NCBI GenBank assembly: GCA_011620645.1
Contig: WOYS01000018.1
Coordinates: forward strand, 1-58,329
DNA from: Mycobacterium sp.
GTDB lineage: Bacteria > Actinomycetota > Actinomycetes > Mycobacteriales > Mycobacteriaceae
Length of the DNA stretch: 58,329 bases
Reading direction: 5' to 3'
Made by a program: the position numbers and the translations under genes. Below, in pieces: positions 995 through 13,451 of this stretch (positions are counted from its first letter, which is position 1; every line of letters starts with the position of its first letter). Under the pieces are notes generated by a model, which saw only the letters and a list, made by a program, of their open reading frames with translations, searched no databases and was not told the DNA's origin.

Positions 995-1882
<888 letters not shown>

Positions 1883-1993: not shown

Positions 1994-2329
1994 GTGGTGG
2001 TGGAATCGCTGGACGCGCTGAAGTCGGAGTTCTTCAGATCGCTGGCACATCCTGCGCGTATCCGGATTCTGGAATTGCTGGTTGCTGGTGATCGGTCGGT
2101 GACCGAGTTGCTGCCCGCGGTCGGTGTGGAAGCCTCAAACCTGTCTCAGCAGCTCGGTGTGCTCCGCAGGGCTGGAATTGTGAGTGCACGCCGGCAGGGC
2201 AATTCGGTCACCTACTCGATCGGCTCCCCGCATATCGCTGAGCTGTTGGCGGTGGCCCGCACAGTGCTGTCGGGACTGTTGAACGAACAGGTCGACGCGC
2301 TTGAGCGTTCGGCGATCGAGGCGTCGTGA
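1994..2329 (+). CDS. ArsR-family transcriptional regulator (Rv0081-like), first gene of hyc operon
   Basis: This 111-residue winged-helix protein carries the ArsR signature FFRSLAHPARIRILELL, and its recognition-helix region reads VGVEASNLSQQLGVLRRAGIV. It closely resembles M. tuberculosis Rv0081, a regulator I recall as linked to hypoxia and to the adjacent hyc genes. No cysteine pairs are visible, so a classical metal site on alpha-3 is not evident. The start is GTG at 1994 or GTG at 1997, behind GGGGAGG at 1984-1990. The stop overlaps the GTG start of the next gene, so it is translationally coupled to the hydrogenase-like operon. A paralogue lies at the far end of the operon (9533). Confidence 0.88.
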   Translation: MVVESLDALKSEFFRSLAHPARIRILELLVAGDRSVTELLPAVGVEASNLSQQLGVLRRAGIVSARRQGNSVTYSIGSPHIAELLAVARTVLSGLLNEQVDALERSAIEAS

Positions 2330-2808
2330 GGGGCTGGATCGCCAAAATAGTCAAGGTCGGCCGGGTCACCGGTCCGGCTGGTGATCGGCCGGCGGTCGCT
2401 GCCGATGCCCCGACGGGGGTGGCGGGTTCATTGCAGGTGCGCCACGTCGACGCCGGTTCGTGCAACGGCTGCGAGGTGGAGATTTCCGGCGCGTTCGGCC
2501 CCGTGTATGACGCTGAACGCTTCGGCGCTCGCCTGGTCGCCTCGCCGCGGCACGCCGATGCGCTGTTGGTGACCGGTGTGGTGACCCGCAACATGGCCCA
2601 GCCGTTGCGCAACACCCTGGAGGCGACACCGGCGCCGCGGGTGGTGATCGCGTGCGGTGACTGCGCGCTCAACCGTGGGGTGTTCGCTGAGGCCTACGGG
2701 GTCGTCGGTGCGGTCGGGGAGGTGGTAGCGGTCGACGTTGAGATTCCGGGCTGCCCGCCGACGCCCACGCAGATTGTGGCCGCGCTGCGGTCGGTGACCG
2801 GGCGATGA
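2326..2808 (+). CDS. NuoB/HycG-like iron-sulfur subunit of hydrogenase-type membrane complex (Rv0082-like)
   Basis: This 160-residue protein corresponds to the small electron-transfer subunit of group 4 hydrogenases and complex I. The four cysteines that hold the proximal [4Fe-4S] cluster are visible: C46 and C49 in GSCNGCEVE, C113 in ACGDCALN and C143 in PGCPPTP. The gene starts with GTG overlapping the arsR stop (GTGA) and its own stop overlaps the next ATG (ATGA at 2805). The partner large subunit is encoded at 7876. The cluster ligands are intact here, unlike the nickel site of that partner, so this subunit could still carry electrons. Confidence 0.85.
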   Translation: MRGWIAKIVKVGRVTGPAGDRPAVAADAPTGVAGSLQVRHVDAGSCNGCEVEISGAFGPVYDAERFGARLVASPRHADALLVTGVVTRNMAQPLRNTLEATPAPRVVIACGDCALNRGVFAEAYGVVGAVGEVVAVDVEIPGCPPTPTQIVAALRSVTGR

Positions 2809-4781
2809 CCGTCAGTGTCGAGGCCGCAGTCCGCGTCGAACCGATCGTGTTGCGCCACCGCGGTTTCGGATCTGCCACCGCAGGACTGTTGACATCTGCG
2901 CTGGGTGTGGTCGGGGTTGGGCTCGGCCTGGCCGGGGTGCTGGGGCCACCGCGCTCGGTAGAGATCGGCTGGTTGGTTCCGTTGCTCGGCGTCGCGCTTC
3001 GCCTGGATCCGCTGGGCGGGTTCTTCATGGCGCTGACCGGCGCGGTCGCGGTCCCGGTCGGGATCTATGCGATCGGGTACGCCCGCCGTGGGCACCTGGG
3101 CCTCGTCCCACTGTCGGTGCTGCCGTTGTTCGTAGCGGCGATGATGTTGGTGTCGGCTGCGGCGTCGATATCGACGTTCTTGCTGGCCTGGGAACTGATG
3201 GCGGCCGCATCGCTCGTCCTCGTGCTCGCTGAGCACACCCGTCCCGCGGTGCGCTCGGCCGGGGTGTTCTACGCGGTGATGACTCAGCTCGGGTTTGTGG
3301 CGATCCTGCTCGGGCTGATGCTGCTGTCCGCGGCCGGTGGAGCTGACCGGTTCGCCGACCTGTCGGCGGTGCCGCCCGGTGTCGGCACGGCGGTGTTCGT
3401 GCTGACACTGGCCGGCTTCGGGTCCAAAGCCGGGCTGCTGCCGTTGCACGCTTGGTTGCCGCGTGCACACCCCGAGGCGCCTAGCCCGGTCTCGGCGTTG
3501 ATGAGCGCGGCCATGGTCAACCTCGGGATATACGGGATCATCCGAGTCGACCTGCAGCTACTGGGGCCGGGGCCTCGCTGGTGGGGGGTGACGCTGCTGG
3601 TGATCGGCGCGGTGTCGGCGGTGTATGGGGTGTTGCAGGCATCGGTGGCCACCGATCTCAAACGGCTGCTGGCCTACTCGACCGTGGAGAATATGGGGCT
3701 GATCACTGTCGCGCTCGGTGCCGCGACACTGCTTGCCACCTCGGGCGCCACGTCGGCGGCCACGGTGGCGATGGCCGCGGCGCTGCTGCATCTAGTGGCC
3801 CACGCCGGGTTCAAATGCCTCGGTTTCCTGGCCGCCGGATCGGTGCTTGCCGAGACCGGGCTGCGCAACCTCGACCGCCTCGGCGGTCTGGCCCGGCGGA
3901 TGCCCGCCACCACGATCCTGTTCGGGGTGGCTGCACTCGGCGCCTCCGGTCTGCCGTTGGGCGCCGGGTTCGTCAGCGAGTGGCTGCTCGTGCAGTCACT
4001 GATTCACGCCGCGCCCGACCACAACACCCTGGTCGCCCTGGCCACTCCGCTGGCGGTCGGTGCAGTCGCGCTGACCACCGGACTCGGGGTGGCGGCGATG
4101 GTGAAGGCGTTCGGCATCGGGTTTCTGGCCCGGCCCCGCTCTGATGCCGCTGCCGAGGCCCGGGAGGCGCCCGCCAGCATGCTCACCGGAATGGTGGCGG
4201 CAGCCGTAGCCTGCGTGGTGGTGGCCGTCGCGCCGTTCGTGCTCGCCTCCCCGTTGCGGCGAGTGCTGGCCGCAGTACCCGCTTCGGCGGGGGCGGATCT
4301 GTCGGGGCTGGGTACGGTCCTGCACCTGCCCGGCCTGGCCGGGTCGATCGCTCCGGGGCTGATCGCCGTCTTCCTCGTTATCGCGGTGCTGGTCGCGGTG
4401 GGTGCGGCCCGGTGGGGATCGCGGCGGCGCCCGCAGCCGGTGGCATTACCGCTGTGGGCGTGCGGCGCGGACGATCTCACCGCGCGGATGCAGTACACGG
4501 CCACCTCGTTCGCCGAACCGTTGCAGCGGGTGTTCGACGATGTGCTGCGACCCGATACTGATATCGAGGTCACCCCCTTCGAGGAGTCGCAGTACCTGGT
4601 GGCCGAGGTCGCCTACCGGGCCCGGATCAGCGACTCCGTCCAGGATTTGCTCTACACCCCGGTCATCCGGGCGGTCACGTTGTGCGCCAACGGTGTTCGC
4701 CGCGCACACACCGGCAGTGTGCATCTTTACCTCGCCTACGGCGCGCTCGGCGTCCTGATCGTCTTGCTGGTGGCGCAATGA
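2805..4781 (+). CDS. Antiporter-like (NuoL/HyfB type) proton-translocating membrane subunit (Rv0083-like)
   Basis: This 658-residue polytopic protein carries the hallmark of the NuoL/M/N and Mrp family, GSKAGLLPLHAWLPRAHPEA followed by SPVSALMSAAMVNLGIYG, with the conserved lysine. A second conserved region, ATDLKRLLAYSTVENMG, lies near residues 285-300. About 14-16 hydrophobic segments run through the protein. In the family these subunits move protons or sodium across the membrane, driven by the peripheral redox arm. The start overlaps the preceding stop by four bases and the stop overlaps the hycD start. The soluble C-terminal part (about 550-640) is typical of HyfB-like members. Confidence 0.87.
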   Translation: MTVSVEAAVRVEPIVLRHRGFGSATAGLLTSALGVVGVGLGLAGVLGPPRSVEIGWLVPLLGVALRLDPLGGFFMALTGAVAVPVGIYAIGYARRGHLGLVPLSVLPLFVAAMMLVSAAASISTFLLAWELMAAASLVLVLAEHTRPAVRSAGVFYAVMTQLGFVAILLGLMLLSAAGGADRFADLSAVPPGVGTAVFVLTLAGFGSKAGLLPLHAWLPRAHPEAPSPVSALMSAAMVNLGIYGIIRVDLQLLGPGPRWWGVTLLVIGAVSAVYGVLQASVATDLKRLLAYSTVENMGLITVALGAATLLATSGATSAATVAMAAALLHLVAHAGFKCLGFLAAGSVLAETGLRNLDRLGGLARRMPATTILFGVAALGASGLPLGAGFVSEWLLVQSLIHAAPDHNTLVALATPLAVGAVALTTGLGVAAMVKAFGIGFLARPRSDAAAEAREAPASMLTGMVAAAVACVVVAVAPFVLASPLRRVLAAVPASAGADLSGLGTVLHLPGLAGSIAPGLIAVFLVIAVLVAVGAARWGSRRRPQPVALPLWACGADDLTARMQYTATSFAEPLQRVFDDVLRPDTDIEVTPFEESQYLVAEVAYRARISDSVQDLLYTPVIRAVTLCANGVRRAHTGSVHLYLAYGALGVLIVLLVAQ

Positions 4782-5734
4782 ACGTTCTGGCGTACCTGGC
4801 CGGGGCCGCGCAGATTGGTGGAGTCGCTCTTGGCGCCCCGGTGGTGATCGGAATGACGCGCCAGGTCAGGGCTCGGCTGGAAGGTCGCGTCGGTGGCGGG
4901 GTGCTGCAGCCGTGGCGGGATCTGCGCAAACAGCTCCGCAAACAGCAGATCACCCCGAACGGCACCACCGTGGTGTTCCGCGCGGCGCCCGCCATCCTGG
5001 CCGGAACGACGCTGCTCATCGTCGCCGTGCTGCCGCTGGTGGCGACCGGCTCACCGCTGGACCCCGTCGCCGACCTGTTCGCCGTTGTCGGTCTGCTGTT
5101 CCTTGGCACCGTGGCGTTGACCCTGGCCGGCATCGACACCGGCACCTCGTTCGGCGGGATGGGCGCCAGTCGCGAGATCACCATCGCCGCCCTGGTCGAA
5201 CCCACCATCCTGCTCGCGGTCTTCGCCCTGTCCATCCCGACCGGGTCGTCCAACCTCGGCGCCATCGTGGCGCACACGATCGACAACCCCGGCCAGGTGG
5301 TGTCACTGCCCGGTGTGCTCGCCTGCGTGGCGCTGGTGGTGGTGATCATCGCCGAAACGGGCCGCCTTCCCGTCGACAACCCCGCCACCCACCTGGAGTT
5401 GACGATGGTGCACGAGGCGATGGTGCTCGAATACGCCGGGCCGCGCCTCGCGGTCGTCGAATGGGCCTCCGGAATGCGCCTGACGGTGCTGCTCGCACTG
5501 CTGGCGAACCTGTTCATCCCATGGGGTATCGCCGGTCCGGATCCCGGCGTCCTCGATGTCGTGATCGGCATCCTCGCGGTCGCCGTGAAGGTCGCGGTCC
5601 TGGCCGTCTTGCTGGCCGGCGCCGAGATGTTCCTGGCCAAGCTGAGGCTGTTCCGGGTGCCCGAACTGCTCGCCGGATCCTTCCTGCTGGCACTACTCGC
5701 GGTGACCGCAGCCAACTTCTTCATCCGGGCATGA
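4778..5734 (+). CDS. hycD: HycD/NuoH-like membrane anchor subunit
   Basis: This 318-residue membrane protein of the NuoH/HycD family links the peripheral arm to the ion-pumping arm. The family motif is visible as [20 protein letters not shown], followed by [16 protein letters not shown], including the charged Glu and Asp residues that line the channel entrance in relatives. Around eight hydrophobic helices can be counted. The ATG at 4778 overlaps the stop of the preceding gene as ATGA. A short gap separates it from hycP, with a purine-rich stretch (GAAAGGGA) spanning its stop. Confidence 0.87.
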
Positions 5735-5747
5735 AAGGGACCAAACC

Positions 5748-6410
5748 GTGACCGACACCGCCTTCGCGGGCCTGATCGATCTCGCCGCGGGCGCCATGGT
5801 GCTGGCCGCCGTCCTGATCGTGTGGCGCCGCGATCTGGCATCCATCATCAGGCTGCTCGCCTGGCAGGGGGCCGCGCTGGCCGCGATCCCGATCATCCGC
5901 GGCGTACACGAGGGCGACGCAACGCTGGTCGGTATCGGCGTGCTCATCGCGGTGCTGCGTGTGGTGGGGTTGCCGTGGCTGCTGGCCCGGGCGTTGGGGG
6001 CCGAGGAACGCGGATCGCGGGAGGCCACCCCGCTGGTGAACACCACCGCCTCGCTGTTGATGACGGCACTTCTGACGGTCGTCGCGTTCGGGGTCACCCG
6101 GCCCGTGGTGAACCTGGAGCCCGGCGTCACCACGGGCGCGGTTCCCGGTGCGTTCGCCGTGGTGCTGATCGCGTTGTTCGTGATGGTCACCCGGCGCCAC
6201 GCTATCTCGCAGGCGGCGGGATTCTTGATGCTGGACAACGGGATTGCCGCGACCGCGTTCCTGCTAACCGCCGGAGTGCCGGTGATCGTGGAGTTCGGCG
6301 CGTCGCTGGACGTGCTGTTCGCGGTGATCGTGATCGGTGTCCTCACCGGTCGGATGCGACGCAAATTCGGCGGCGCTGACCTCGACGCACTGCAGGAGTT
6401 GCACGACTGA
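5748..6410 (+). CDS. hycP: HycP/HyfE-like small membrane subunit
   Basis: The 220-residue hydrophobic protein starts with GTG at 5748 behind GAAAGGGA. It has about seven predicted membrane helices and matches the HyfE/HycP class in position and length (Rv0085 in M. tuberculosis). The N-terminal half resembles NuoK in helix pattern; the family has no catalytic motif. The C-terminus ends with a basic segment (GRMRRKFGG) probably on the cytoplasmic side. Its stop overlaps the ATG of hycQ by one base. Assignment rests on context plus hydrophobic pattern more than on sequence motifs. Confidence 0.8.
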
Positions 6411-7879
6411 TGACACCGCTGCTGCTCATCTCGCTGGTGGCGCCACTGGCGGCCGCCGCGATCACCGCTGTGGCCGGTTGGCACCGCGTGACGGCGACCG
6501 CGTCGGTGCTGGCCGCGATGAGCATCCTGGGCTGCGGTGCCGCACTCGCGTTCCAGGTCGGATCGGCCCAGCATGTGCTTGCCGGTGGTCTGTTGCGCGC
6601 CGACGCGCTGTCGGTGGTGATGCTGATCGTCATCGGCACCGTCGGCACCCTGAGCGCCGTGGCCAGCATCGGCTACATCGACGCCGAAGGCGACCACGGC
6701 CACACCACCCCGGCGGGCGCGCGGCTCTACGGCACGCTCACCCCAGCGTTCCTGGCCGCCATGGTCCTGGCGGTGTCGGCCAACAACATCGGCGTCATCT
6801 GGGTTGCGATTGAGGCGACCACGGTGATCACCGCGTTCCTGGTCGGGCACCGCCGCACCCGGGGCTCGCTGGAAGCGACCTGGAAATACGTGATCATCTG
6901 CTCGGTCGGGATCGCCATGGCGTTCCTGGGCACGATCCTGCTGTATTTCGCCGCCCAGCACGCGGGCGCCGACAGCGGCCACGCCCTGGACCTCGACTTC
7001 CTCGTCGCCCATGCGGGTGGTCTCGATCCCGGCGTGACCCGCCTGGCGGGCGGGCTGCTGTTGATCGGCTACGGCGCCAAGGTCGGGCTCGTCCCGTTCC
7101 ACACCTGGCTGGCCGATGCGCACAGCCAGGCACCCGCCCCGGTGTCGGCCTTGATGAGCGGCGTCCTGCTGTCGGTCGCGTTCTCGGTGCTGCTACGGAT
7201 CAAACCGATCATCGACACCGCGGTCGGAACGGGGTTCCTGCGCTGGGGGTTACTCACGGTCGGGCTGGCCACGGTCGGCGTCGCGGCGATGCTGCTGACC
7301 GTGACCACCGACCTGAAACGAATGCTCGCCTACTCCTCGATGGAAAACATGGGGCTGATCGCGATCGCCGCCGCGGCCGGCACGAAACTCGCGATCGCGG
7401 CGCTGCTGCTGCACGTCCTGGCGCACGGCATCGGCAAGACCGTGTTGTTCCTCGCCAGCGGGCAATTGCAGGCGGCCCACGATTCCACCTCAATCCCCGA
7501 CATCACCGCGGTGTTGCATCGTTCCCGTCTGATCGGGGTTTCGTTCGCAATCGGCATGCTGGTGCTGCTCGGGTTGCCGCCATTTGCGATGTTCGCCAGC
7601 GAACTGTCGATCGCACGGGCACTGGCCGATGCCCGGCTGGCCTGGGCGCTGGGCGTCGTTCTGCTGCTGATCGCGGTCGCCTTCGCCGCCCTGGTGCGCC
7701 GTTCAGGGCGGATGCTGCTCGGGGCACCGGCCGCCGGGTCGCCCCCGATCGCGGTCCCGGTGACCGTCGCCGCAGCGCTGCTCGTCGGGGTTGCGGCCTG
7801 TTTCGTGCTGGGTGTCACCGCCGGTCCGCTGACCGCACTGTTGCACACCGCCGCTGAGCAACTCGGGGTGCCGTGGTGA
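6410..7879 (+). CDS. hycQ: HycQ/HyfF-like antiporter-type membrane subunit
   Basis: This 489-residue protein is a second member of the NuoL/M/N family in the same operon. It shows GYGAKVGLVPFHTWLADAHS and then APAPVSALMSGVLLSVAFSV, the conserved lysine-bearing helix, and TDLKRMLAYSSMENMGL in the next conserved region. Having two antiporter-like subunits fits HyfB plus HyfF in hydrogenase-4-type complexes, implying more than one ion-translocation path. The start overlaps hycP, and the stop overlaps the GTG start of hycE. Confidence 0.86.
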   Translation: MTPLLLISLVAPLAAAAITAVAGWHRVTATASVLAAMSILGCGAALAFQVGSAQHVLAGGLLRADALSVVMLIVIGTVGTLSAVASIGYIDAEGDHGHTTPAGARLYGTLTPAFLAAMVLAVSANNIGVIWVAIEATTVITAFLVGHRRTRGSLEATWKYVIICSVGIAMAFLGTILLYFAAQHAGADSGHALDLDFLVAHAGGLDPGVTRLAGGLLLIGYGAKVGLVPFHTWLADAHSQAPAPVSALMSGVLLSVAFSVLLRIKPIIDTAVGTGFLRWGLLTVGLATVGVAAMLLTVTTDLKRMLAYSSMENMGLIAIAAAAGTKLAIAALLLHVLAHGIGKTVLFLASGQLQAAHDSTSIPDITAVLHRSRLIGVSFAIGMLVLLGLPPFAMFASELSIARALADARLAWALGVVLLLIAVAFAALVRRSGRMLLGAPAAGSPPIAVPVTVAAALLVGVAACFVLGVTAGPLTALLHTAAEQLGVPW

Positions 7880-9351
7880 CCGCGCAGCGCAGCAGCCGGA
7901 CGGTGGTCGCCGACGAACGCCCCGACGCGACCGAGGAATTGCTCGCCGCCGGATATCGGCTGGGCCTGGTCGCCGCGCACGACGACGGCGACGCGGTGCG
8001 GATTGTGTCGCTCTTCCTCGCCGGGCGTCCCGATCGTCGCGTCGAACTCACCACCAGTGTGCCCACCGACGATCTTGCGCTGCGGTCCTTGGCCTATCTG
8101 TCGTTCCCGGCGGGCCGCTTCGAGCGGGAAATGATGGACCTCTACGGCATTGAGCTAGTGGGCCATCCGCGGCCGCGGCGCTTGGTCCTCCACGCGCACT
8201 GGCCACAGGAGTGGTATCCGATGCGCGCCGATGCCGGGCCTGCGCCCGAATTCTCGGCTAGCCGCTACCCGTTCCTCACCGTCGACGGAGAGGGTGTCTA
8301 CGAGATCCCTGTCGGGCCGGTCCACGCCGGGCTCATCGAACCCGGGCACTTCCGGTTCTCCGTCGTCGGGGAAACCGTTCTGCGGCTGAAAATCCGGCTC
8401 TGGTTCACCCACCGCGGTATCGAGAAACTCTTCCAGGGCCGCGCCGCAACCAACGCCACCGACATCGCCGAACGGATCAGCGGGGACACCTCGGCGGGTC
8501 ACGCGCTGGCGCACAGCCTGGCCGTCGAGGACGCCCTCGGTATCGCGGTACCCGACGAGGTGCACCGGCTGCGGGCGCTGCTGATCGAACTGGAACGCCT
8601 CTACAACCACGCCACCGACCTCGGCGCCCTGGCCAACGACGTCGGCTTCGCCCTGGCCAACGCCCACGCCCAGCGCATCCGCGAACAACTTCTGCGGATC
8701 AACGACGACGTGACCGGTCACCGATTGCTGCGGGGCGCGATCCGCCCCGGCGGGGTGGCGCTACGGGCGCTACCCGACCCCCACGAACTCGAGGCGATCG
8801 GAGGGGACCTCGCCGAAGTCGCCGAGCTGACCCTGGCCAATACGGGGGTCTATGACCGGTTCGCCGGCACCGCGATCCTGAGCACCGAGCAGGCCGGCGA
8901 GCTGGGCTGTTTGGGCTTCGTCGCCCGCGCCAGCGGTGTGGCCACCGATGCCCGCCTCGACCATCCCAGCGTCGCCCTGCCAGTCACCGCGATCAGCGCG
9001 ACGGCCGGGGATGTGCTGGCCCGCTACACCGTGCGCCGCGACGAATTCGCGGCCTCGGTCGCCTTAGCGTGTCATCTGATCGACAGCGCCGATATGCGGC
9101 TCGACTACGTTGCCTCACCACCACCGCCTGGTGCCGTACGCAGCGGCGTCGGCATCGTCGAAGGATGGCGGGGGACCATCGTGCATCGCGTCGAACTCGA
9201 CGCCAATGGGGCGATCACCCGATCGAAAATCGTCGACCCGTCCTGGTTCAACTGGCCTGCCCTGCCGGTGGCGATGGCCAACACCATCGTCCCGGACTTC
9301 CCGCTGACCAACAAAAGCTTCAACCAGTCCTATGCCGGCAACGACCTCTAA
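7876..9351 (+). CDS. hycE: HycE-like large subunit (fused NuoC/NuoD domains) lacking nickel ligands
   Basis: This is a fusion of an N-terminal NuoC-like domain (about residues 1-125; EREMMDLYGIELVGHPRPRR) and a C-terminal NuoD/hydrogenase large-subunit domain. True [NiFe] enzymes have two CxxC motifs. Here the first position reads RISGDTSAGHALA (about residues 200-212), with serines in place of both cysteines, and the C-terminal one reads DPSWFNW (about 454-460) where DPCxxC would be. No Ni-Fe centre can be bound in the usual way. The family resemblance is to energy-converting hydrogenase-related (Ehr) complexes. The start is GTG at 7873 or 7876; I use 7876, which overlaps the hycQ stop as GTGA. 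It is the last gene of the operon; no hyp maturation gene, ferredoxin-like HycF or formate dehydrogenase accompanies it. Confidence 0.85.
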   Translation: MTAQRSSRTVVADERPDATEELLAAGYRLGLVAAHDDGDAVRIVSLFLAGRPDRRVELTTSVPTDDLALRSLAYLSFPAGRFEREMMDLYGIELVGHPRPRRLVLHAHWPQEWYPMRADAGPAPEFSASRYPFLTVDGEGVYEIPVGPVHAGLIEPGHFRFSVVGETVLRLKIRLWFTHRGIEKLFQGRAATNATDIAERISGDTSAGHALAHSLAVEDALGIAVPDEVHRLRALLIELERLYNHATDLGALANDVGFALANAHAQRIREQLLRINDDVTGHRLLRGAIRPGGVALRALPDPHELEAIGGDLAEVAELTLANTGVYDRFAGTAILSTEQAGELGCLGFVARASGVATDARLDHPSVALPVTAISATAGDVLARYTVRRDEFAASVALACHLIDSADMRLDYVASPPPPGAVRSGVGIVEGWRGTIVHRVELDANGAITRSKIVDPSWFNWPALPVAMANTIVPDFPLTNKSFNQSYAGNDL

Positions 9352-9411
9352 CCAGCACCAAGTTCTTGCCTCGCCACCGCGTGGGGAAACTTGAATGCCC
9401 CACGAGCAGGA

Positions 9412-9440
9412 ATTATGCTAGATTGCTAAGGTACGCAAGT
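9412..9440. promoter_or_regulatory. Candidate ArsR-type operator, site C, before second arsR
   Basis: TATGCTAGATTGCTAAG at 9415-9431 is followed by GTACGCAAG. It is nearly the same as site B (TATGCTAAATTGCTTAA) and is AT-rich against the background. It lies about 100 bases before the ATG at 9533. Confidence 0.55.
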
Positions 9441-9464
9441 AACGGTGTCAGATAAGTGGGACCG

Positions 9465-9496
9465 CACGCGTAGACGTGAACACGCGTAGACGTGAA
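9465..9496. repeat. 16-bp perfect tandem duplication in arsR2 leader
   Basis: CACGCGTAGACGTGAA occurs at 9465-9480 and again at 9481-9496, between operator site C and the ribosome binding site of the second arsR gene. Confidence 0.9.
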
Positions 9497-9532
9497 CACC
9501 GGGGCCCGCGCGACGATACCGGAGGAGAGCCC

Positions 9533-9895
9533 ATGGTAGAACTATCGCGTCAGCCGCTGTATCGGATGAAGGCAGACTTCTTCAAGACACTGGGCCACCC
9601 CGCCCGCATCCGCGTGCTTGAGTTGCTCAGCCAACGCGAGCACACCGTCTCGGAAATGGTGCCCGAAATCGGGATCGAGCCGGCCAACCTCTCCCAGCAG
9701 CTATCTATCCTGCGCCGAGCCGGTCTGGTCGTCGCCCGCCGCGAAGGGCTGTCAGTGACTTATGCACTGACCTCGCCGCGGGTCGCCGAACTGCTGGTGA
9801 CCGCGCGGGCGATCCTGACCGGCGTGGTCGCCGGACAGGCCGAAACGCTCGAAGACCGACCCGTGCCCGATCTGGTCAGCGGCTCTACGGGCTGA
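9533..9895 (+). CDS. Second ArsR-family regulator, Rv0081-like paralogue
   Basis: The 120-residue protein is a paralogue of the one at 1994: FFKTLGHPARIRVLELL and EPANLSQQLSILRRAGLV match it almost word for word. The start is set at ATG 9533 because a strong GGAGGAGAG lies at 9521-9529; the frame stays open further upstream to a GTG at 9476, but that reading passes through the tandem repeat and has no ribosome site. It follows the hyc operon on the same strand with its own promoter region. The shared operator-like motif suggests that the two paralogues read overlapping sets of sites, perhaps as homo- or heterodimers. Confidence 0.87.
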   Translation: MVELSRQPLYRMKADFFKTLGHPARIRVLELLSQREHTVSEMVPEIGIEPANLSQQLSILRRAGLVVARREGLSVTYALTSPRVAELLVTARAILTGVVAGQAETLEDRPVPDLVSGSTG

Positions 9896-9990
9896 TTCGA
9901 CCGCAGTAGACGACAAGTCAAGCCCGCCCATTAATTGCAGAAATTCTAAAGTGCGAACATAAAGGTGACGAGTTGGGGGTGGACCGGGAA

Positions 9991-10224
9991 ATGTTTACGA
10001 TGACGAACAATTCCGCTGGTGAGGTACGCAGCGCGGCCCAGGCCAGCCGGGTGCTCTCGCCCATCGGGGTCGGCGTGATCGGGGTCGCCGCGACCCGCAC
10101 CCGACCCTGCACCGCGTGGACGGCGATGGAGGATTTGCCGGCGGCGCTGTTCGACTACGGGCGCGCCGCACAGGCAACCCTCTCGCAGATCCTCGCCGGC
10201 TGGTGTGAGGACTACCGCACGTGA
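9991..10224 (+). CDS. Small hypothetical protein
   Basis: An open frame of 77 codons begins at ATG 9991 after GGGGGTGG. The central part (PAALFDYGRAAQATLSQILAG) looks like an ordinary soluble helical protein, and codon third positions are GC-rich as in real mycobacterial genes. I do not recognise a family. It follows the second arsR gene by about 95 bases and precedes a strong hairpin at 10250, which fits a short transcription unit. It could also be a chance frame or a remnant. Confidence 0.4.
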   Translation: MFTMTNNSAGEVRSAAQASRVLSPIGVGVIGVAATRTRPCTAWTAMEDLPAALFDYGRAAQATLSQILAGWCEDYRT

Positions 10225-10249
10225 CAGTGCAGACAGTGATCGACTAGCC

Positions 10250-10270
10250 GCGCGCTGCTGCACAGCGCGC
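10250..10270 (+). terminator. Strong hairpin, likely transcription terminator
   Basis: GCGCGCTG at 10250-10257 pairs with CAGCGCGC at 10263-10270 across a five-base loop. There is no U-tract, as is common for mycobacterial terminators. It lies 25 bases after the small frame ending at 10224. Confidence 0.5.
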
Positions 10271-10585
10271 AATGCCCGTCGATGATCGCCCTGATTGAAC
10301 CCGTTGAGGATCACACCAGGGGGAGTTCTTCATCGCGGCCCAACGAGCAGGCGGACTGGCCGACGGCCACCATCAGCTGATGTGCAGCGCCGCCTCGAGC
10401 GCCAGGCGAAGGTTGCCGAGAGGCTCACCGCCAAGAATGTGCTGACCTCACCCCTGTGACAGAACCGACCACCCAGTGGTGCGGTGCATGAACTGAAACA
10501 GTGACCGCCGAGAGGGTTTGCGGGGCGGTGGAGAACGACGGTGGGCGGCGTCCGTGACTGGCGCGCAGTGGACTAAACTCACTAG
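10271..10585. other. Intergenic stretch without recognisable gene
   Basis: No frame here has a convincing start, ribosome site or family resemblance. The last 60 bases probably hold the promoter of the desaturase-like gene at 10586, but I cannot point to clear -35 and -10 elements. Confidence 0.4.
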
Positions 10586-11413
10586 ATGCCGCACGAACGC
10601 GTTGCTTCACCGTTGATGCTCGAACTCGAACCCGTCGTCATCGATACCTACGCGCGACACATCGAGACGGCCACACGGTGGTATGCGCACGACTACGTGC
10701 GGTTTGATCAAGGTCAGAATTTCACATCCCTCGGTGGCCACGACTGGGATCCGTCGCAGGTGACGCTGCCCGCCCACGTCGCCGACGCGCTGGAGATCGT
10801 GCTGATCACCAAGGACAACCTGGCCGGCTACCACCACCGGCTGGCCGAGCACTTCATCCTTGCGGGCTGGTGGGGCAAGTGGATCGGCCGGTGGACGGCT
10901 GACGAGTATCTGCACGCGTTCGCGCTGCGCCAAAACCTGGTGCTGACCCGCCAGATCGACCCGATCGCCAACGAGAGGGTCCGCGTCGAGCATGTGATGG
11001 CGGGTCACCGCCCCGACGACCACACCCAGGTCGAGACCCTGGTGTTCATGACGTTGTGGGAACGAGTTCACGCGGTGTTCCTGCGTCGGCTGGCCACCCA
11101 CATCGAGGAACCGGTCCTGCGCCGCCTTGTCGAGGTAATCGCCGCCGACGAGGAGCGCCATGAGACGTTCTTCGCCGAGATTGTCCAGGCCTGCCTGCGG
11201 ATTGTGCCCGCCGCGACTATCGCGGCCATCGTCGCCCGCGCGCTCGAGCTGCAAGTGGTCGGCGCAGATATCGACGCATACAAGGACAAAGTCCGCAATG
11301 TCGCGAACAACGGCATATTCGACCAGGACACCCTGCGTGAAGTGATTTCCGACCGCATCAAAACGTGGCATCTGGCAGAGCTTCCCGAGCTGAGCAACTT
11401 CGTCGTCACGTGA
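10586..11413 (+). CDS. Acyl-[ACP] desaturase-like diiron protein
   Basis: The 275-residue protein shows the ferritin-like layout of soluble acyl-ACP desaturases (DesA group). An early Glu on a helix (about residue 88, AEHFILAGWWGKW) precedes DEYLH (about 106-110) and later DEERHE (about 189-194), giving the two ExxH motifs that bind a diiron centre. In the family such enzymes introduce a double bond in acyl chains carried by ACP, using oxygen and a ferredoxin-type electron donor. The start ATG at 10586 has only a weak upstream ribosome site. It stands alone between accessory remnants. Substrate cannot be told from sequence; a plain ferritin-like oxidase role is also possible. Confidence 0.75.
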   Translation: MPHERVASPLMLELEPVVIDTYARHIETATRWYAHDYVRFDQGQNFTSLGGHDWDPSQVTLPAHVADALEIVLITKDNLAGYHHRLAEHFILAGWWGKWIGRWTADEYLHAFALRQNLVLTRQIDPIANERVRVEHVMAGHRPDDHTQVETLVFMTLWERVHAVFLRRLATHIEEPVLRRLVEVIAADEERHETFFAEIVQACLRIVPAATIAAIVARALELQVVGADIDAYKDKVRNVANNGIFDQDTLREVISDRIKTWHLAELPELSNFVVT

Positions 11414-11574
11414 GCCGGCTGCGCGGCAGGGCGGTGGGGTAACGACACGCATTCGCACGCATCCCGCGACGAAGCGTGAACGGTTCGATATCAATCTGAT
11501 TCGGCTGCAACAACTCCCACCCACTTCCCTCCTTCCGGCGCGCTTGGGCGGCGTTGCGCTACGACGAGCGCCGT

Positions 11575-11857
11575 GAGGTCAACAAAAAAAGCAACCGGCC
11601 GATCTGATGGTCGGTGTGCTCCAGGAACCCGGCGAACACCTCCATCATGCGGGCGTAGAGCCGGCGCCATCGGCAGGCAGGTCATCCCACTGCTGCACAT
11701 CGGGATCGTGGCGGGACAGCACCGCATCCGCAGGCACGATGCCCCGTTCCTTCTGATGCGCGAATACCTTCTCGCGGTAGGCGTCCCAGCCGTCATCGAA
11801 TTTGCCGGATGTACTTGTCCGCCCATTCCCTGGGCACATGGTGCGGGGTGTGCATGC
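11575..11857 (-). pseudogene. Arylsulfatase fragment with frameshifts
   Basis: Three minus-strand frames together rebuild part of a sulfatase. HTPHHVPREWADKYI lies near 11855-11810, GKFDDGWDAYREKVFAHQKE with [20 protein letters not shown] in a second frame, and [20 protein letters not shown] with IGRLL in a third frame ending near 11585. This is the order found in full-length arylsulfatases after the catalytic N-terminal part. The catalytic Cys region and the C-terminus are absent, so this is a dead internal fragment of about 90 codons. It lies between the desaturase-like gene and the radical SAM gene, which are otherwise unrelated. Confidence 0.8.
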
Positions 11858-11914
11858 TACGTCGGTGACGAGTTGGGCAAGCCCGGTGGCAGCCGCGGTG
11901 CTCCGCGGGCTGTC

Positions 11915-12958
11915 CTAGAAAAGGGTGGGGTGCGCCGGTGCCGTGACTTCGGAGGAAACGGCACCGGCGCTCGCCGTCGGCTGTGCCGACAATGTGGCCG
12001 GGGTGGGGGTACGCCCAGTCAGTCGGTACCGCGCGAGCAGCGGCGCCACCCGGGCACGCAGCTCATCTCGGTACTCCGGGGACAGATAGGCTCCACGCCG
12101 GTACAAGCTCCGGTATTCGAAGACGCGCTCGGGATGGGTGCGCTTCAACCACTGCATGAACCAATCCCGCGTCGAACCGCGCAGATGCAAGGCGAACACG
12201 GTGGCCCCGGTGGCGCCCGCCTCGGCGATCTGGCGCAGCAGCGCATCGAGATGCTCGACGGAATCGGTCAGTCCGGGTAGCACCGGGGCAACCATCACGT
12301 GGCAGTCCAGTCCGGCGTCGCGGATCGCAGAGATCAGCGCCAGTCGCGCCTGCGGCGACGGTGTGCCGGGCTCCAGTTCACGCTGCAATGTCGGGTCCGC
12401 CATCGCCAGCGAGATCGCCACGCTCGCGCCGGCCCCCTCGTGGGCGGCCTCGGCGATCAGCGGCAGATCCCGGCGCAGCAGCGTGCCCTTGGTGAGGATG
12501 GAGAACGGCGTCCCGGAATCGGCGAGTGCGCTCACGATGCCCGGCATCAGCCGGTAGCGCCCCTCGGCCCGCTGATACGGATCGGTGTTGGTGCCCAGCG
12601 CCACCGTCTCCCTGGCCCAGGACGGACGGCGCAACTCACGGGAAAGTACCTCGGCCACATTCGTTTTCACCACGACCTCGGTGTCGAAGTCCGAACCCGG
12701 GTCGAAGTCCAGGTATTCGTGGGTGGGCCGGGCGAAGCAGTACCGGCAGGCGTGCGAGCACCCGCGGTAGCCGTTGACGGTGTACCGGAACGGCAGCATG
12801 GCGGCGTTGGGCACCTTGTTCAGCGCGGACTTGCACAGGATCTCGTGAAAGGTGATCCCGTCGAACTCCGGCGTTCGCACGCTGCGGACGAATCCGAGGC
12901 GCTGCAGACCGGGCAGCGCGCCGTCGTCGACGCGTACACCTTGTCCGTCCCATCGCAT
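11915..12958 (-). CDS. Radical SAM protein of Rv2578c family, LexA-controlled
   Basis: This 347-residue protein has the CxxxCxxC motif as RGCSHACRYCFARPTHEYL (Cys 67, 71, 74), which binds the [4Fe-4S] cluster that cleaves S-adenosylmethionine. The family is conserved in actinobacteria (Rv2578c in M. tuberculosis); the C-terminal region resembles spore photoproduct lyase-like radical SAM proteins only loosely, and the substrate is unknown to me. The ATG at 12958 abuts a 28-bp palindrome that contains a perfect mycobacterial LexA box, and the promoter geometry puts the transcript start at or next to the ATG, implying leaderless translation. That places the gene in the DNA-damage response. The last 30 residues are low complexity and rich in Ala, Thr and Pro. 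Confidence 0.85.
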   Translation of the reverse strand: MRWDGQGVRVDDGALPGLQRLGFVRSVRTPEFDGITFHEILCKSALNKVPNAAMLPFRYTVNGYRGCSHACRYCFARPTHEYLDFDPGSDFDTEVVVKTNVAEVLSRELRRPSWARETVALGTNTDPYQRAEGRYRLMPGIVSALADSGTPFSILTKGTLLRRDLPLIAEAAHEGAGASVAISLAMADPTLQRELEPGTPSPQARLALISAIRDAGLDCHVMVAPVLPGLTDSVEHLDALLRQIAEAGATGATVFALHLRGSTRDWFMQWLKRTHPERVFEYRSLYRRGAYLSPEYRDELRARVAPLLARYRLTGRTPTPATLSAQPTASAGAVSSEVTAPAHPTLF

Positions 12959-12993
12959 AAATCAATCGAACGATTGTTCGATTGATTTGTCAA
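12958..12993 (-). promoter_or_regulatory. LexA/SOS box and leaderless promoter of the radical SAM gene
   Basis: TCGAACGATTGTTCGA (12966-12981) matches the mycobacterial LexA consensus TCGAAC-N4-GTTCGA at every defined position and is extended to a 28-bp palindrome (12960-12987) with arms AATCAATCGAAC and GTTCGATTGATT. On the minus strand TTGACA (12988-12993) is a perfect -35, and 17 bases later TTCGAT (12965-12970) serves as -10 inside the operator. The expected start point about seven bases on coincides with the ATG at 12958. Confidence 0.85.
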
Positions 12994-13020
12994 GCAGCTA
13001 CCACGTCAAGCAGCTACCAC
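12989..13020. repeat. 16-bp perfect tandem duplication duplicating the -35 region
   Basis: GTCAAGCAGCTACCAC occurs at 12989-13004 and at 13005-13020. The copies include most of the TTGAC of the radical SAM promoter and the last codons and stop of the upstream secreted-protein gene. Confidence 0.9.
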
Positions 13021-13451
13021 TGAGCGCCCTGGCACAACGGGCTGTAGGGGTTGTCCTGCGCAGCGATGACCACTCCGTCGGCAGCGATCTCACAGCGCGC
13101 GTTGGGGGCGCCGACACTGCCCTTGGTGGTGCTGCTCACCTGGAAGATCGCCCACTGCGGGTCGGCCAGCGTCGTCTCGACCGCCCAGGGTGCCCCCGGC
13201 CCGACGTTGATGGTCTCGCGCTTGACGTAGGCGTAGGCGTCATCGTTGTAGGCGTCCTTACTCGCCGGCTGAGCCGTGAGGTAGAGCACCTGGAACTGGT
13301 ACGGAGCAGCCGATGTCAGCGTGTACCGCACCAACTGTCCGGCGGGTTCGGCGTTGGCCGTCGCCGCGCCGAACGCGAGCGCGGTGCCCGCGACCATCAC
13401 CGCTGCACCGACGGTTGCCCCGACCTTGCTCGTAGCTTTTCGCATGCCCAT
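13014..13451 (-). CDS. Small secreted protein (Rv2576c-like)
   Basis: The frame is open from 13514, but the sensible start is ATG 13451 or 13445, giving MRKATSKVGATVGAAVMVAG as a Sec signal peptide with a cleavage site near TANAEP. The mature part of about 105 residues begins VRYTLTSAAPYQFQVLYL and ends with a Cys pair (ARCEIAADG and PLCQGAQW) that could form a disulfide. The beta-rich pattern recalls MmpS-like periplasmic domains of mycobacteria, but this is only a resemblance. Position next to the phosphatase and the radical SAM gene matches Rv2576c. The end of the gene lies inside the tandem repeat that abuts the neighbouring promoter. Exact role unknown. Confidence 0.7.
   Translation of the reverse strand: MGMRKATSKVGATVGAAVMVAGTALAFGAATANAEPAGQLVRYTLTSAAPYQFQVLYLTAQPASKDAYNDDAYAYVKRETINVGPGAPWAVETTLADPQWAIFQVSSTTKGSVGAPNARCEIAADGVVIAAQDNPYSPLCQGAQW

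What the first reader, a model, noticed from the sequence alone, without database searches (positions are those of the whole stretch)
1994..9351. Hydrogenase-4-like complex whose catalytic subunit has lost all nickel ligands
The operon encodes every membrane part plus an intact NuoB-like Fe-S subunit (Cys 46, 49, 113, 143). The large subunit reads RISGDTSAGHALA and DPSWFNW where [NiFe] hydrogenases have CxxC motifs. No formate dehydrogenase, polyferredoxin or hyp maturation genes are present. Seen: the residues and gene content. Known: Ehr-type complexes lack these ligands and have unknown substrates. Inferred: an ion-pumping redox machine with a different electron donor or acceptor, probably relevant under low oxygen given its Rv0081-type regulator.
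Basis: partly seen in the sequence, partly recalled or inferred. Interest (0 to 1): 0.75.

Follow-up and report, generated by a model that had tools for sequence, protein, structure and literature searches.

The report
Hydrogenase-like proton pump without nickel site
This mycobacterial operon, of a type often labelled a hydrogen-making enzyme, encodes a complex I-like membrane pump whose nickel site has been replaced by a different, strongly conserved pocket, so it almost certainly does not handle hydrogen and its real job is unknown.

Summary
Six intact, closely packed genes (2326-9351) behind an ArsR regulator encode a Hyf-like complex whose large subunit has no nickel ligand. The first CxxC is S203-G-D-T206. 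The NuoB-like subunit keeps all four cluster cysteines. It is an Ehr complex (energy-converting hydrogenase-related), a known kind of unknown function.

The vacated site is conserved, not decaying: 76 of 78 homologues picked without regard to it have G-D at 204-205, the other two the Cys pair. Y487, G489 and D491 are invariant in 90 Ehr rows; dN/dS is 0.04-0.27. Unlike most related hydrogenases and basal Ehr examined, the operon has no ferredoxin subunit, leaving one predicted redox centre.

HypD and real [NiFe] hydrogenase genes exist elsewhere in the genome.

Unexpectedly, related complexes in CPR bacteria, some Microbacteriaceae and a second mycobacterial operon have lost that last cluster too; where tested (CPR, second operon) the genes are under purifying selection. 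Redox chemistry may be dispensable in this family.

The parts
1994..2329 (+). ArsR/SmtB-type regulator, no cysteine; overlaps the next gene by 4 bases
   Evidence: PF01022 2.4e-9; NF033788, 83 bits over cut-off 55
2326..2808 (+). NuoB/HyfI/HycG-like small subunit; Cys46, 49, 113, 143 for one predicted [4Fe-4S] cluster, CxxC spacing as in hydrogenases
   Evidence: (PF01058 4e-29)
2805..4781 (+). HyfB-like antiporter-type membrane subunit; its eight family-conserved charged or His residues are the same in E. coli HyfB, six of eight in HycC
   Evidence: (NF005086 1.2e-167, 559 bits, below cut-off 667)
4778..5734 (+). HyfC/HycD/NuoH-like membrane subunit; 13 of 18 family-conserved charged or His residues the same in E. 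coli HyfC
   Evidence: (PF00146 1.6e-40)
5748..6410 (+). HyfE-like membrane subunit
   Evidence: NF008556 7.6e-18, below its cut-off; no Pfam match
6410..7879 (+). HyfF-like antiporter-type membrane subunit; its 15 family-conserved charged or His residues are the same in E. coli HyfF
   Evidence: (NF005044 2e-101, below its cut-off)
7873..9351 (+). HycE/HyfG-like large subunit (NuoC-like plus NuoD-like), no nickel ligand, no C-terminal extension
8473..8502 (+). codons 201-210, RISGDTSAGH: former first CxxC, now S203 and T206, with D205 between them
9328..9339 (+). codons 486-489, SYAG: former second CxxC, now S486 and G489
9235..9255 (+). codons 455-461, DPSWFNW: not the CxxC site; D455 is typical of Ehr (81 of 90 rows), S or A in 23 of 25 related hydrogenase rows

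Best explanation
An Ehr complex of the type without ferredoxin subunit. Shown by sequence: no nickel ligand, the full hydrogenase-type cysteine set for one [4Fe-4S] cluster, a membrane arm with its conserved charged residues, and a vacated pocket remade with conserved residues. Inferred: a soluble low-potential carrier docks on the NuoB-like/large-subunit face left bare by the missing ferredoxin subunit and passes electrons through the single cluster to a small polar substrate (or a quinone held in a way unlike complex I) in the old Ni-Fe pocket. The redox-linked movement drives H+ or Na+ translocation through HyfC, HyfF and HyfB. It does not make or use H2. That it is an Ehr and not a hydrogenase I hold at about 0.97; the redox-coupled mechanism is the less certain part, and the confidence below is for that.
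Against: No donor, acceptor or partner gene was seen to recur beside the operon, though the gene picker was crude and only ten neighbours from seven loci were annotated. Related complexes lost the last cluster, and those tested stay under selection, so the cluster may not be essential. Three more Ehr rows have one cluster Cys replaced (L066, L068, L082). The model is weakest (pLDDT under 50) at residues 105-108, 128-132, 134-181 and 488-492, part of the pocket region; no pocket or tunnel was computed. dN/dS does not tell redox from non-redox function.
Confidence: 0.55

Rival explanations
1. Non-redox ion transporter: the complex works as an ion translocator or antiporter gated by a ligand in the old active site, and the cluster is structural or vestigial.
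For: The last cluster is lost in 13 of 13 full-length CPR-type NuoB rows (three or four of four Cys replaced, mostly by T, D, E or G), in 8 of 8 second-type mycobacterial operons, and three of four Cys in L209 and L234 of Microbacteriaceae. Purifying selection: second mycobacterial type 0.14-0.19 in five comparisons; one CPR NuoB pair 0.04, the other four CPR pairs having saturated dS; the Microbacteriaceae rows were not tested. The L090 operon has all six genes, and the 28 positions compared in its HyfB, HyfC and HyfF have the residues of the window; its HyfE gave no hit in that call.
Against: The window and 67 of 73 Ehr rows keep all four Cys. The window NuoB is among the slowest-evolving subunits: 98.8% identical to L039, though HyfC is slightly slower against L041 and L043. 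The CPR clade is a separate side branch of the main Ehr clade (100/100). In the second mycobacterial type some membrane-arm residues have changed as well (HyfB 222 and 286, HyfC 213 and others).
Confidence: 0.25
2. Ferredoxin- or flavoprotein-fed (mena)quinone reductase, complex I-like at its acceptor site.
Against: The His38 equivalent is Ile in 90 of 90 rows and the Tyr87 equivalent is Y 44, F 25, H 11, A 8, L 2. NuoB has CxxC, not the adjacent CC that a paper gives for complex I (passages). No NuoI-like subunit in the operon.
Confidence: 0.13
3. MBS-like: polysulfide reduced directly at the proximal cluster.
For: MBS also lost nickel and uses the proximal cluster as catalyst (PMC7684303, passages).
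Against: MBS has a cluster loop three residues shorter with three Cys ligands, keeps two of the four Ni cysteines and has a subunit with two more clusters. The window has the full four-Cys set, no Ni cysteine and no such subunit.
Confidence: 0.04
4. A working [NiFe] hydrogenase or formate hydrogenlyase, as such loci are annotated.
For: Annotation by homology in papers (PMC6901956, PMC3087520; passages); HypD in the genome.
Against: None of the four ligands is present; 76 of 78 homologues also lack the first pair.
Confidence: 0.02

Closest known systems
Ehr complexes (energy-converting hydrogenase-related), as described for comammox Nitrospira, CPR and Margulisbacteria
   Same: Group 4-like large subunit without CxxC motifs and antiporter-type membrane subunits (passages). 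My own Nitrospira and CPR rows fall in the same supported main clade as the window (97/91).
   Different: The window type has no ferredoxin subunit; the Margulisbacteria work proposes a partner formate dehydrogenase, and none was seen to recur here.
M. tuberculosis Rv0081-Rv0087 (hyc locus)
   Same: Same gene order by annotation: regulator, rv0082, rv0083, hycD, hycP, hycQ, hycE (table passage).
   Different: Papers read in passages here call it a putative hydrogenase or formate hydrogenlyase. Its sequence was not examined here.
E. coli hydrogenase 4 (Hyf) and formate hydrogenlyase (Hyc)
   Same: Subunits B, C, E, F, G and I of Hyf have counterparts; HycE is the best structural match.
   Different: E. 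coli has four Ni cysteines and a C-terminal extension, HyfD, HyfA/HyfH or HycB/HycF subunits and, for Hyc, a maturation protease; the window operon has none of these.
Group 4 hydrogenases of the EPGHFRF type in the phylum of Thermincola and in Planctomycetota (L111, L117, L180 and kin)
   Same: Same PVGPxHAGxIEPGHFRF start and a C-terminus ending just after the site.
   Different: They have the Cys sets (one row, L185, has Phe for one Cys) and a ferredoxin motif next to the large subunit in L111, L117 and 10 of the 15 EPGHFRF-type hydrogenase rows among L178-L201.
Respiratory complex I (NuoB, C, D, H, L/M/N)
   Same: Fold of the large subunit and homologous membrane subunits.
   Different: Quinone-ligand residues and tandem CC motif absent; no NuoI, E, F or G in the operon.

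Membership tests
Ehr complex | Group 4-type large subunit lacking the Ni-Fe cysteines | tested here: met
Ehr complex | Antiporter-like (Mrp-type) membrane subunits in the same operon | tested here: met
Ehr complex | NuoB-like subunit with a proximal Fe-S cluster (feature recalled, not from a passage read) | tested here: met
   four Cys by sequence; the cluster itself is not shown
Ehr complex | Groups with other Ehr in a tree | tested here: met
   main clade of 39 rows 97/91 with Nitrospira and CPR rows; all Ehr as one group only 15/41; no sequence published under the name Ehr was fetched as such
[NiFe] hydrogenase group 4 / formate hydrogenlyase | Two CxxC motifs binding Ni-Fe | tested here: not met
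   S203/T206 and S486/G489
[NiFe] hydrogenase group 4 / formate hydrogenlyase | HycB/HycF-type ferredoxin subunits | tested here: not met
   no such gene among the ten ORFs scanned; motif within 1 kb downstream of the large subunit in only 4 of 80 loci, two of them hydrogenases
[NiFe] hydrogenase group 4 / formate hydrogenlyase | H2 activity | not testable with these tools
   needs a purified complex
Complex I (quinone-reducing NuoB/D) | Adjacent CC pair in NuoB; His38/Tyr87-type quinone ligands in NuoD | tested here: not met
   CNGC; Ile155, and His214 at a variable position; Thermus residue numbers recalled
MBS sulfane reductase | Shortened cluster loop with three Cys ligands, two remaining Ni cysteines, subunit with two more clusters | tested here: not met
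   feature list from PMC7684303 (passages); window

The most novel reading that the evidence does not exclude
Ehr complexes are complex I-type machines being stripped of redox centres step by step: first Ni-Fe, then the ferredoxin subunit, then (independently in CPR, some Microbacteriaceae and a second mycobacterial operon) the last Fe-S cluster, often with aspartates in place of cysteines. The ion-translocating arm and a remade ligand pocket stay under selection. They would then be ligand-driven or ligand-gated ion transporters, and the window complex would be one that still carries its cluster.
Probability: 0.22. Interest if true: 0.88.

Novelty: new member of a known kind. Interest (0 to 1): 0.55.

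Why it matters
Loci of this gene order, including the hyc locus of the tubercle bacillus, are described as hydrogenase or formate hydrogenlyase in the paper passages read here. If they share the window's residues, H2 or formate-lyase roles inferred for them would need revising. The family also offers a natural test of what a complex I-type pump needs: which redox centres can go while the machine is still kept by selection.

Tried and rejected
Rejected: hydrogenase reading (no ligands); MBS reading (cluster loop and Cys pattern differ); pseudogene or decay (intact frames, low dN/dS); missing hyp genes as evidence (HypD and hydrogenase genes are in the genome). DosR box search: nothing at the promoter. 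Neighbour genes: ten proteins from seven loci were annotated: a histidine kinase and a sigma-54 regulator at one Nitrospira locus, and otherwise unrelated families; no shared partner enzyme was seen. The ORF picker is crude: in high-GC loci antisense or fused frames displaced some operon genes (clusters 5, 7 and 8 look like such artefacts), so subunit absences in that table are not evidence. Paper searches. None of the listings or passages I saw states that the mycobacterial locus lacks Ni ligands or that Ehr lost the NuoB cluster, but He 2011, Marreiros 2013 and Berney 2014 are not held, so priority is open. Model coordinates were not found in the script box, so no pocket geometry was computed.

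Rows dropped before counts: one search left out L054, L069, L071, L074, L094, L105, L112 and L116 (partial or odd frames) of 80, L012 (one in-frame stop), L027 and L028 (partial), and added 10 of the 22 other full-length rows L004-L026. One search removed duplicates of the same genomes and identical rows: 92 to 90 Ehr, 28 to 25 Cys rows. One search used 78 of the 80 loci (L054 and L105 not in that alignment). One search covered 118 loci plus the window; 16 gave no NuoB, and L057 is a spurious partial hit counted among those that are not CCCC; besides the four loci named, 12 loci have hits to the loose Cys pattern that lie elsewhere or look spurious (L065 and L076 have ferredoxin-like hits 5-8 kb away); contigs that end before NuoB or a ferredoxin gene say nothing. 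In one search the row L013 is too short to hold HyfB, and its HyfB line is a mis-hit. In one search the CPR rows L096, L098 and L099 were given the NuoB state of a NuoB gene in the same genome, not shown to be adjacent.
Full report
What is there. The window holds an ArsR-type regulator and six genes in one direction, most overlapping by a few bases: NuoB/HyfI-like, HyfB-like, HyfC-like, HyfE-like, HyfF-like and HycE/HyfG-like. The order matches rv0081-rv0087 as annotated in M. tuberculosis (table passage of PMC6901956). The nearest named relative is an uncultured Mycobacterium (L039, 87%), so the host is a mycobacterium or close kin (inference).

The nickel site. phmmer and MAFFT alignments with E. 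coli HycE and HyfG put RISGDT at RVCGIC and SYAG at CYSC. The first-stage reader placed the second site at DPSWFNW. That motif (455-461) lies upstream and aligns with AATYANW of HycE. No cysteine is shifted into either site, and the protein ends three residues after the second, so there is no C-terminal extension of the kind E. coli HycE has (that such extensions are cleaved in maturation is recalled).

The site is conserved. Their titles include Actinobacteria, Acidobacteria, Rokubacteria, Nitrospira, Proteobacteria, CPR lineages and one archaeal MAG. These loci were chosen by two other motifs (GVYEIPVG, IEPGHFRF) and by overall similarity. Of 78 that could be aligned, 76 have G-D at 204-205 and two have the Cys pair. 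In the 76, the C-terminal site reads S-Y-x-G in 68, has N or A for the Ser in 4, and is missing from 4 partial rows. In a wider set of 90 distinct Ehr rows, classed as Ehr by that G-D, Y487, G489, D491, D256, R433, H159 and K481 are invariant and S203 (85), S486 (86), N484 (86) and D455 (81) nearly so. In 25 distinct hydrogenase rows the N-terminal Cys pair is present in 25 and the two C-terminal Cys in 23 and 24, one row being truncated. D205, D256, D455, N484, S486 and G489 set Ehr apart from hydrogenases. Position 206 is freer (T 58, S 21, E 9, N 2). The pocket has been remade rather than abandoned.

Tree. With the two motif sites removed, 78 rows give a main Ehr clade of 39 rows (97/91) that contains the window. 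The hydrogenase rows of the EPGHFRF type are near kin, and E. coli HycE/HyfG lie outside. All 49 Ehr rows need a single change on the tree, but that branch has little support (15/41), so one loss of nickel is possible, not shown.

Electron path. The NuoB-like subunit has four cysteines with CxxC spacing. A paper on MBS states that this spacing lets both cysteines bind the proximal cluster in hydrogenases, while complex I has adjacent cysteines and MBS a shortened loop (PMC7684303, passages). By this criterion the window cluster is hydrogenase-like, made for electron transfer. A ferredoxin-type Cys motif lies within 1 kb downstream of the large-subunit gene in 4 of the 80 loci: the two true hydrogenases (L111, L117) and two basal Ehr (L092, L101). 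In the sample from the phylum of Thermincola it is there, at least in part, in 9 of 9 Ehr loci (L190-L194, L196-L199) and in 16 of 21 hydrogenase loci, not in L182, L183, L195, L200 and L201. So the window complex, with no such gene among its ORFs, would have one redox centre.

Selection. dN/dS between the window and three relatives (L039, L041, L043) is 0.04-0.27 over the six genes.

The genome. The own genome has one other NuoD-like gene, on contig C22, and on contig C66 a HypD and two [NiFe] large subunits. One shows both Cys motifs; of the other I read only the C-terminal part, which has DPCLSC. Six stretches match molybdopterin oxidoreductases; of four that I named, one is a YdeP/FdhF-type protein over its cut-off and two resemble formate dehydrogenase or nitrate reductase below cut-off. 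Thus hydrogenase maturation serves other enzymes (inference), and a formate dehydrogenase partner elsewhere cannot be excluded.

The unexpected part. All four NuoB cysteines are present in 67 of 73 Ehr rows, in 22 of 22 hydrogenase rows and in 0 of 8 rows of a second type. Of the six Ehr exceptions one is a spurious hit (L057), three have one Cys replaced (L066, L068, L082), and L069 and L090 have lost three. (a) The second type is a Hyf-like operon in 8 of 297 sampled same-genus genomes. It has D/N, D, D and S/A at the four positions in 8 of 8. Its large subunit lacks three of the four Ni cysteines in seven rows and all four in one. (b) CPR: a NuoB match was found in 13 of 379 genomes sampled from the phylum of L090. 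With four genomes reached through loci (one in both sets), 13 of 13 full-length Ehr-type rows have lost three or four cysteines; a further row is cut off, and two more distant NuoB-like rows, probably from other enzymes, keep all four. Adjacency to the rest of the operon was checked for L090 only. (c) In 299 genomes of one Microbacteriaceae sample, nine have a match: six have a single Cys replaced (S or N), two have lost three, and one resembles type (a). On the tree, (a) and (b) count as two changes; (c) would be a third, since its kin keep most or all cysteines. Selection: dN/dS 0.14-0.19 in five comparisons for (a); 0.04 for one CPR pair with high dS (1.7), the other four pairs being saturated; (c) was not tested. 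Type (a) sits on a long branch (2.72), so its position is unsure. A paper on CPR metabolism notes that CPR Ehr lack the Ni cysteines (PMC7304191, passages); loss of the cluster is not mentioned in the passages I saw.

How it most likely works. I commit to a redox-coupled ion pump with an unknown non-H2 substrate in the old active site (0.55). The chief rival is an ion transporter for which redox chemistry is dispensable (0.25), then a quinone reductase (0.13). What speaks for redox is the full cysteine set and the slow evolution of the window NuoB subunit (98.8% identical to L039; HyfC is slightly slower against L041 and L043). What speaks against it as a general rule are the clusters lost elsewhere.

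Known or new. Ehr complexes are known and of unknown function (PMC6349859, PMC10284858, PMC10432482; passages). This is a member, in a genus where such loci are called hydrogenase or formate hydrogenlyase in the passages read here. About 84 of 297 sampled same-genus genomes carry a window-type large subunit, some in fragments (my tally of the rows). The stepwise loss of redox centres was not found in my searches, which cover open-licence papers only.

Noticed in passing
L119 about 5824-13438 (+) and L120 about 5912-13451 (-): A second Hyf-like operon in 8 of 297 sampled same-genus genomes whose large subunit has no Ni site and whose NuoB-like subunit has lost all four cluster cysteines (GSDGSDEWE, VGTDA, PGSP in L119). 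It looks redox-dead yet has dN/dS 0.14-0.19 in the two genes tested.
   Followed up: partly
L210-L213, L217-L225: CPR Ehr-type small subunits with three or four of the cluster cysteines replaced, mostly by Thr, Asp, Glu or Gly, in 13 of 13 full-length rows.
   Followed up: partly
L208, L209, L229-L235: Microbacteriaceae small subunits show graded loss: six with one Cys replaced by Ser or Asn, two with three lost, one of the DDDA type.
   Followed up: partly
L190-L194, L196-L199: Ehr variant in the phylum of Thermincola with SGDE in place of SGDT, Asn for the usual His210 and a ferredoxin motif beside the gene.
   Followed up: partly
window 1043-1882 (+): Thiolase of 279 aa that matches the steroid 3-ketoacyl-CoA thiolase model in two stretches, the second (137-278) on model positions 245-386, so that about 100 residues seem to be missing; perhaps an internal deletion.
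   Followed up: no
window 9476-9895 (+): A second ArsR-type regulator just downstream of the operon, in the same sequence cluster as the first.
   Followed up: no
L012 1501-2922: In one same-genus genome the large-subunit match has one in-frame stop; described only.
   Followed up: no
L185: Hydrogenase-like large subunit with the first Cys of the C-terminal pair replaced by Phe, FYSC.
   Followed up: no
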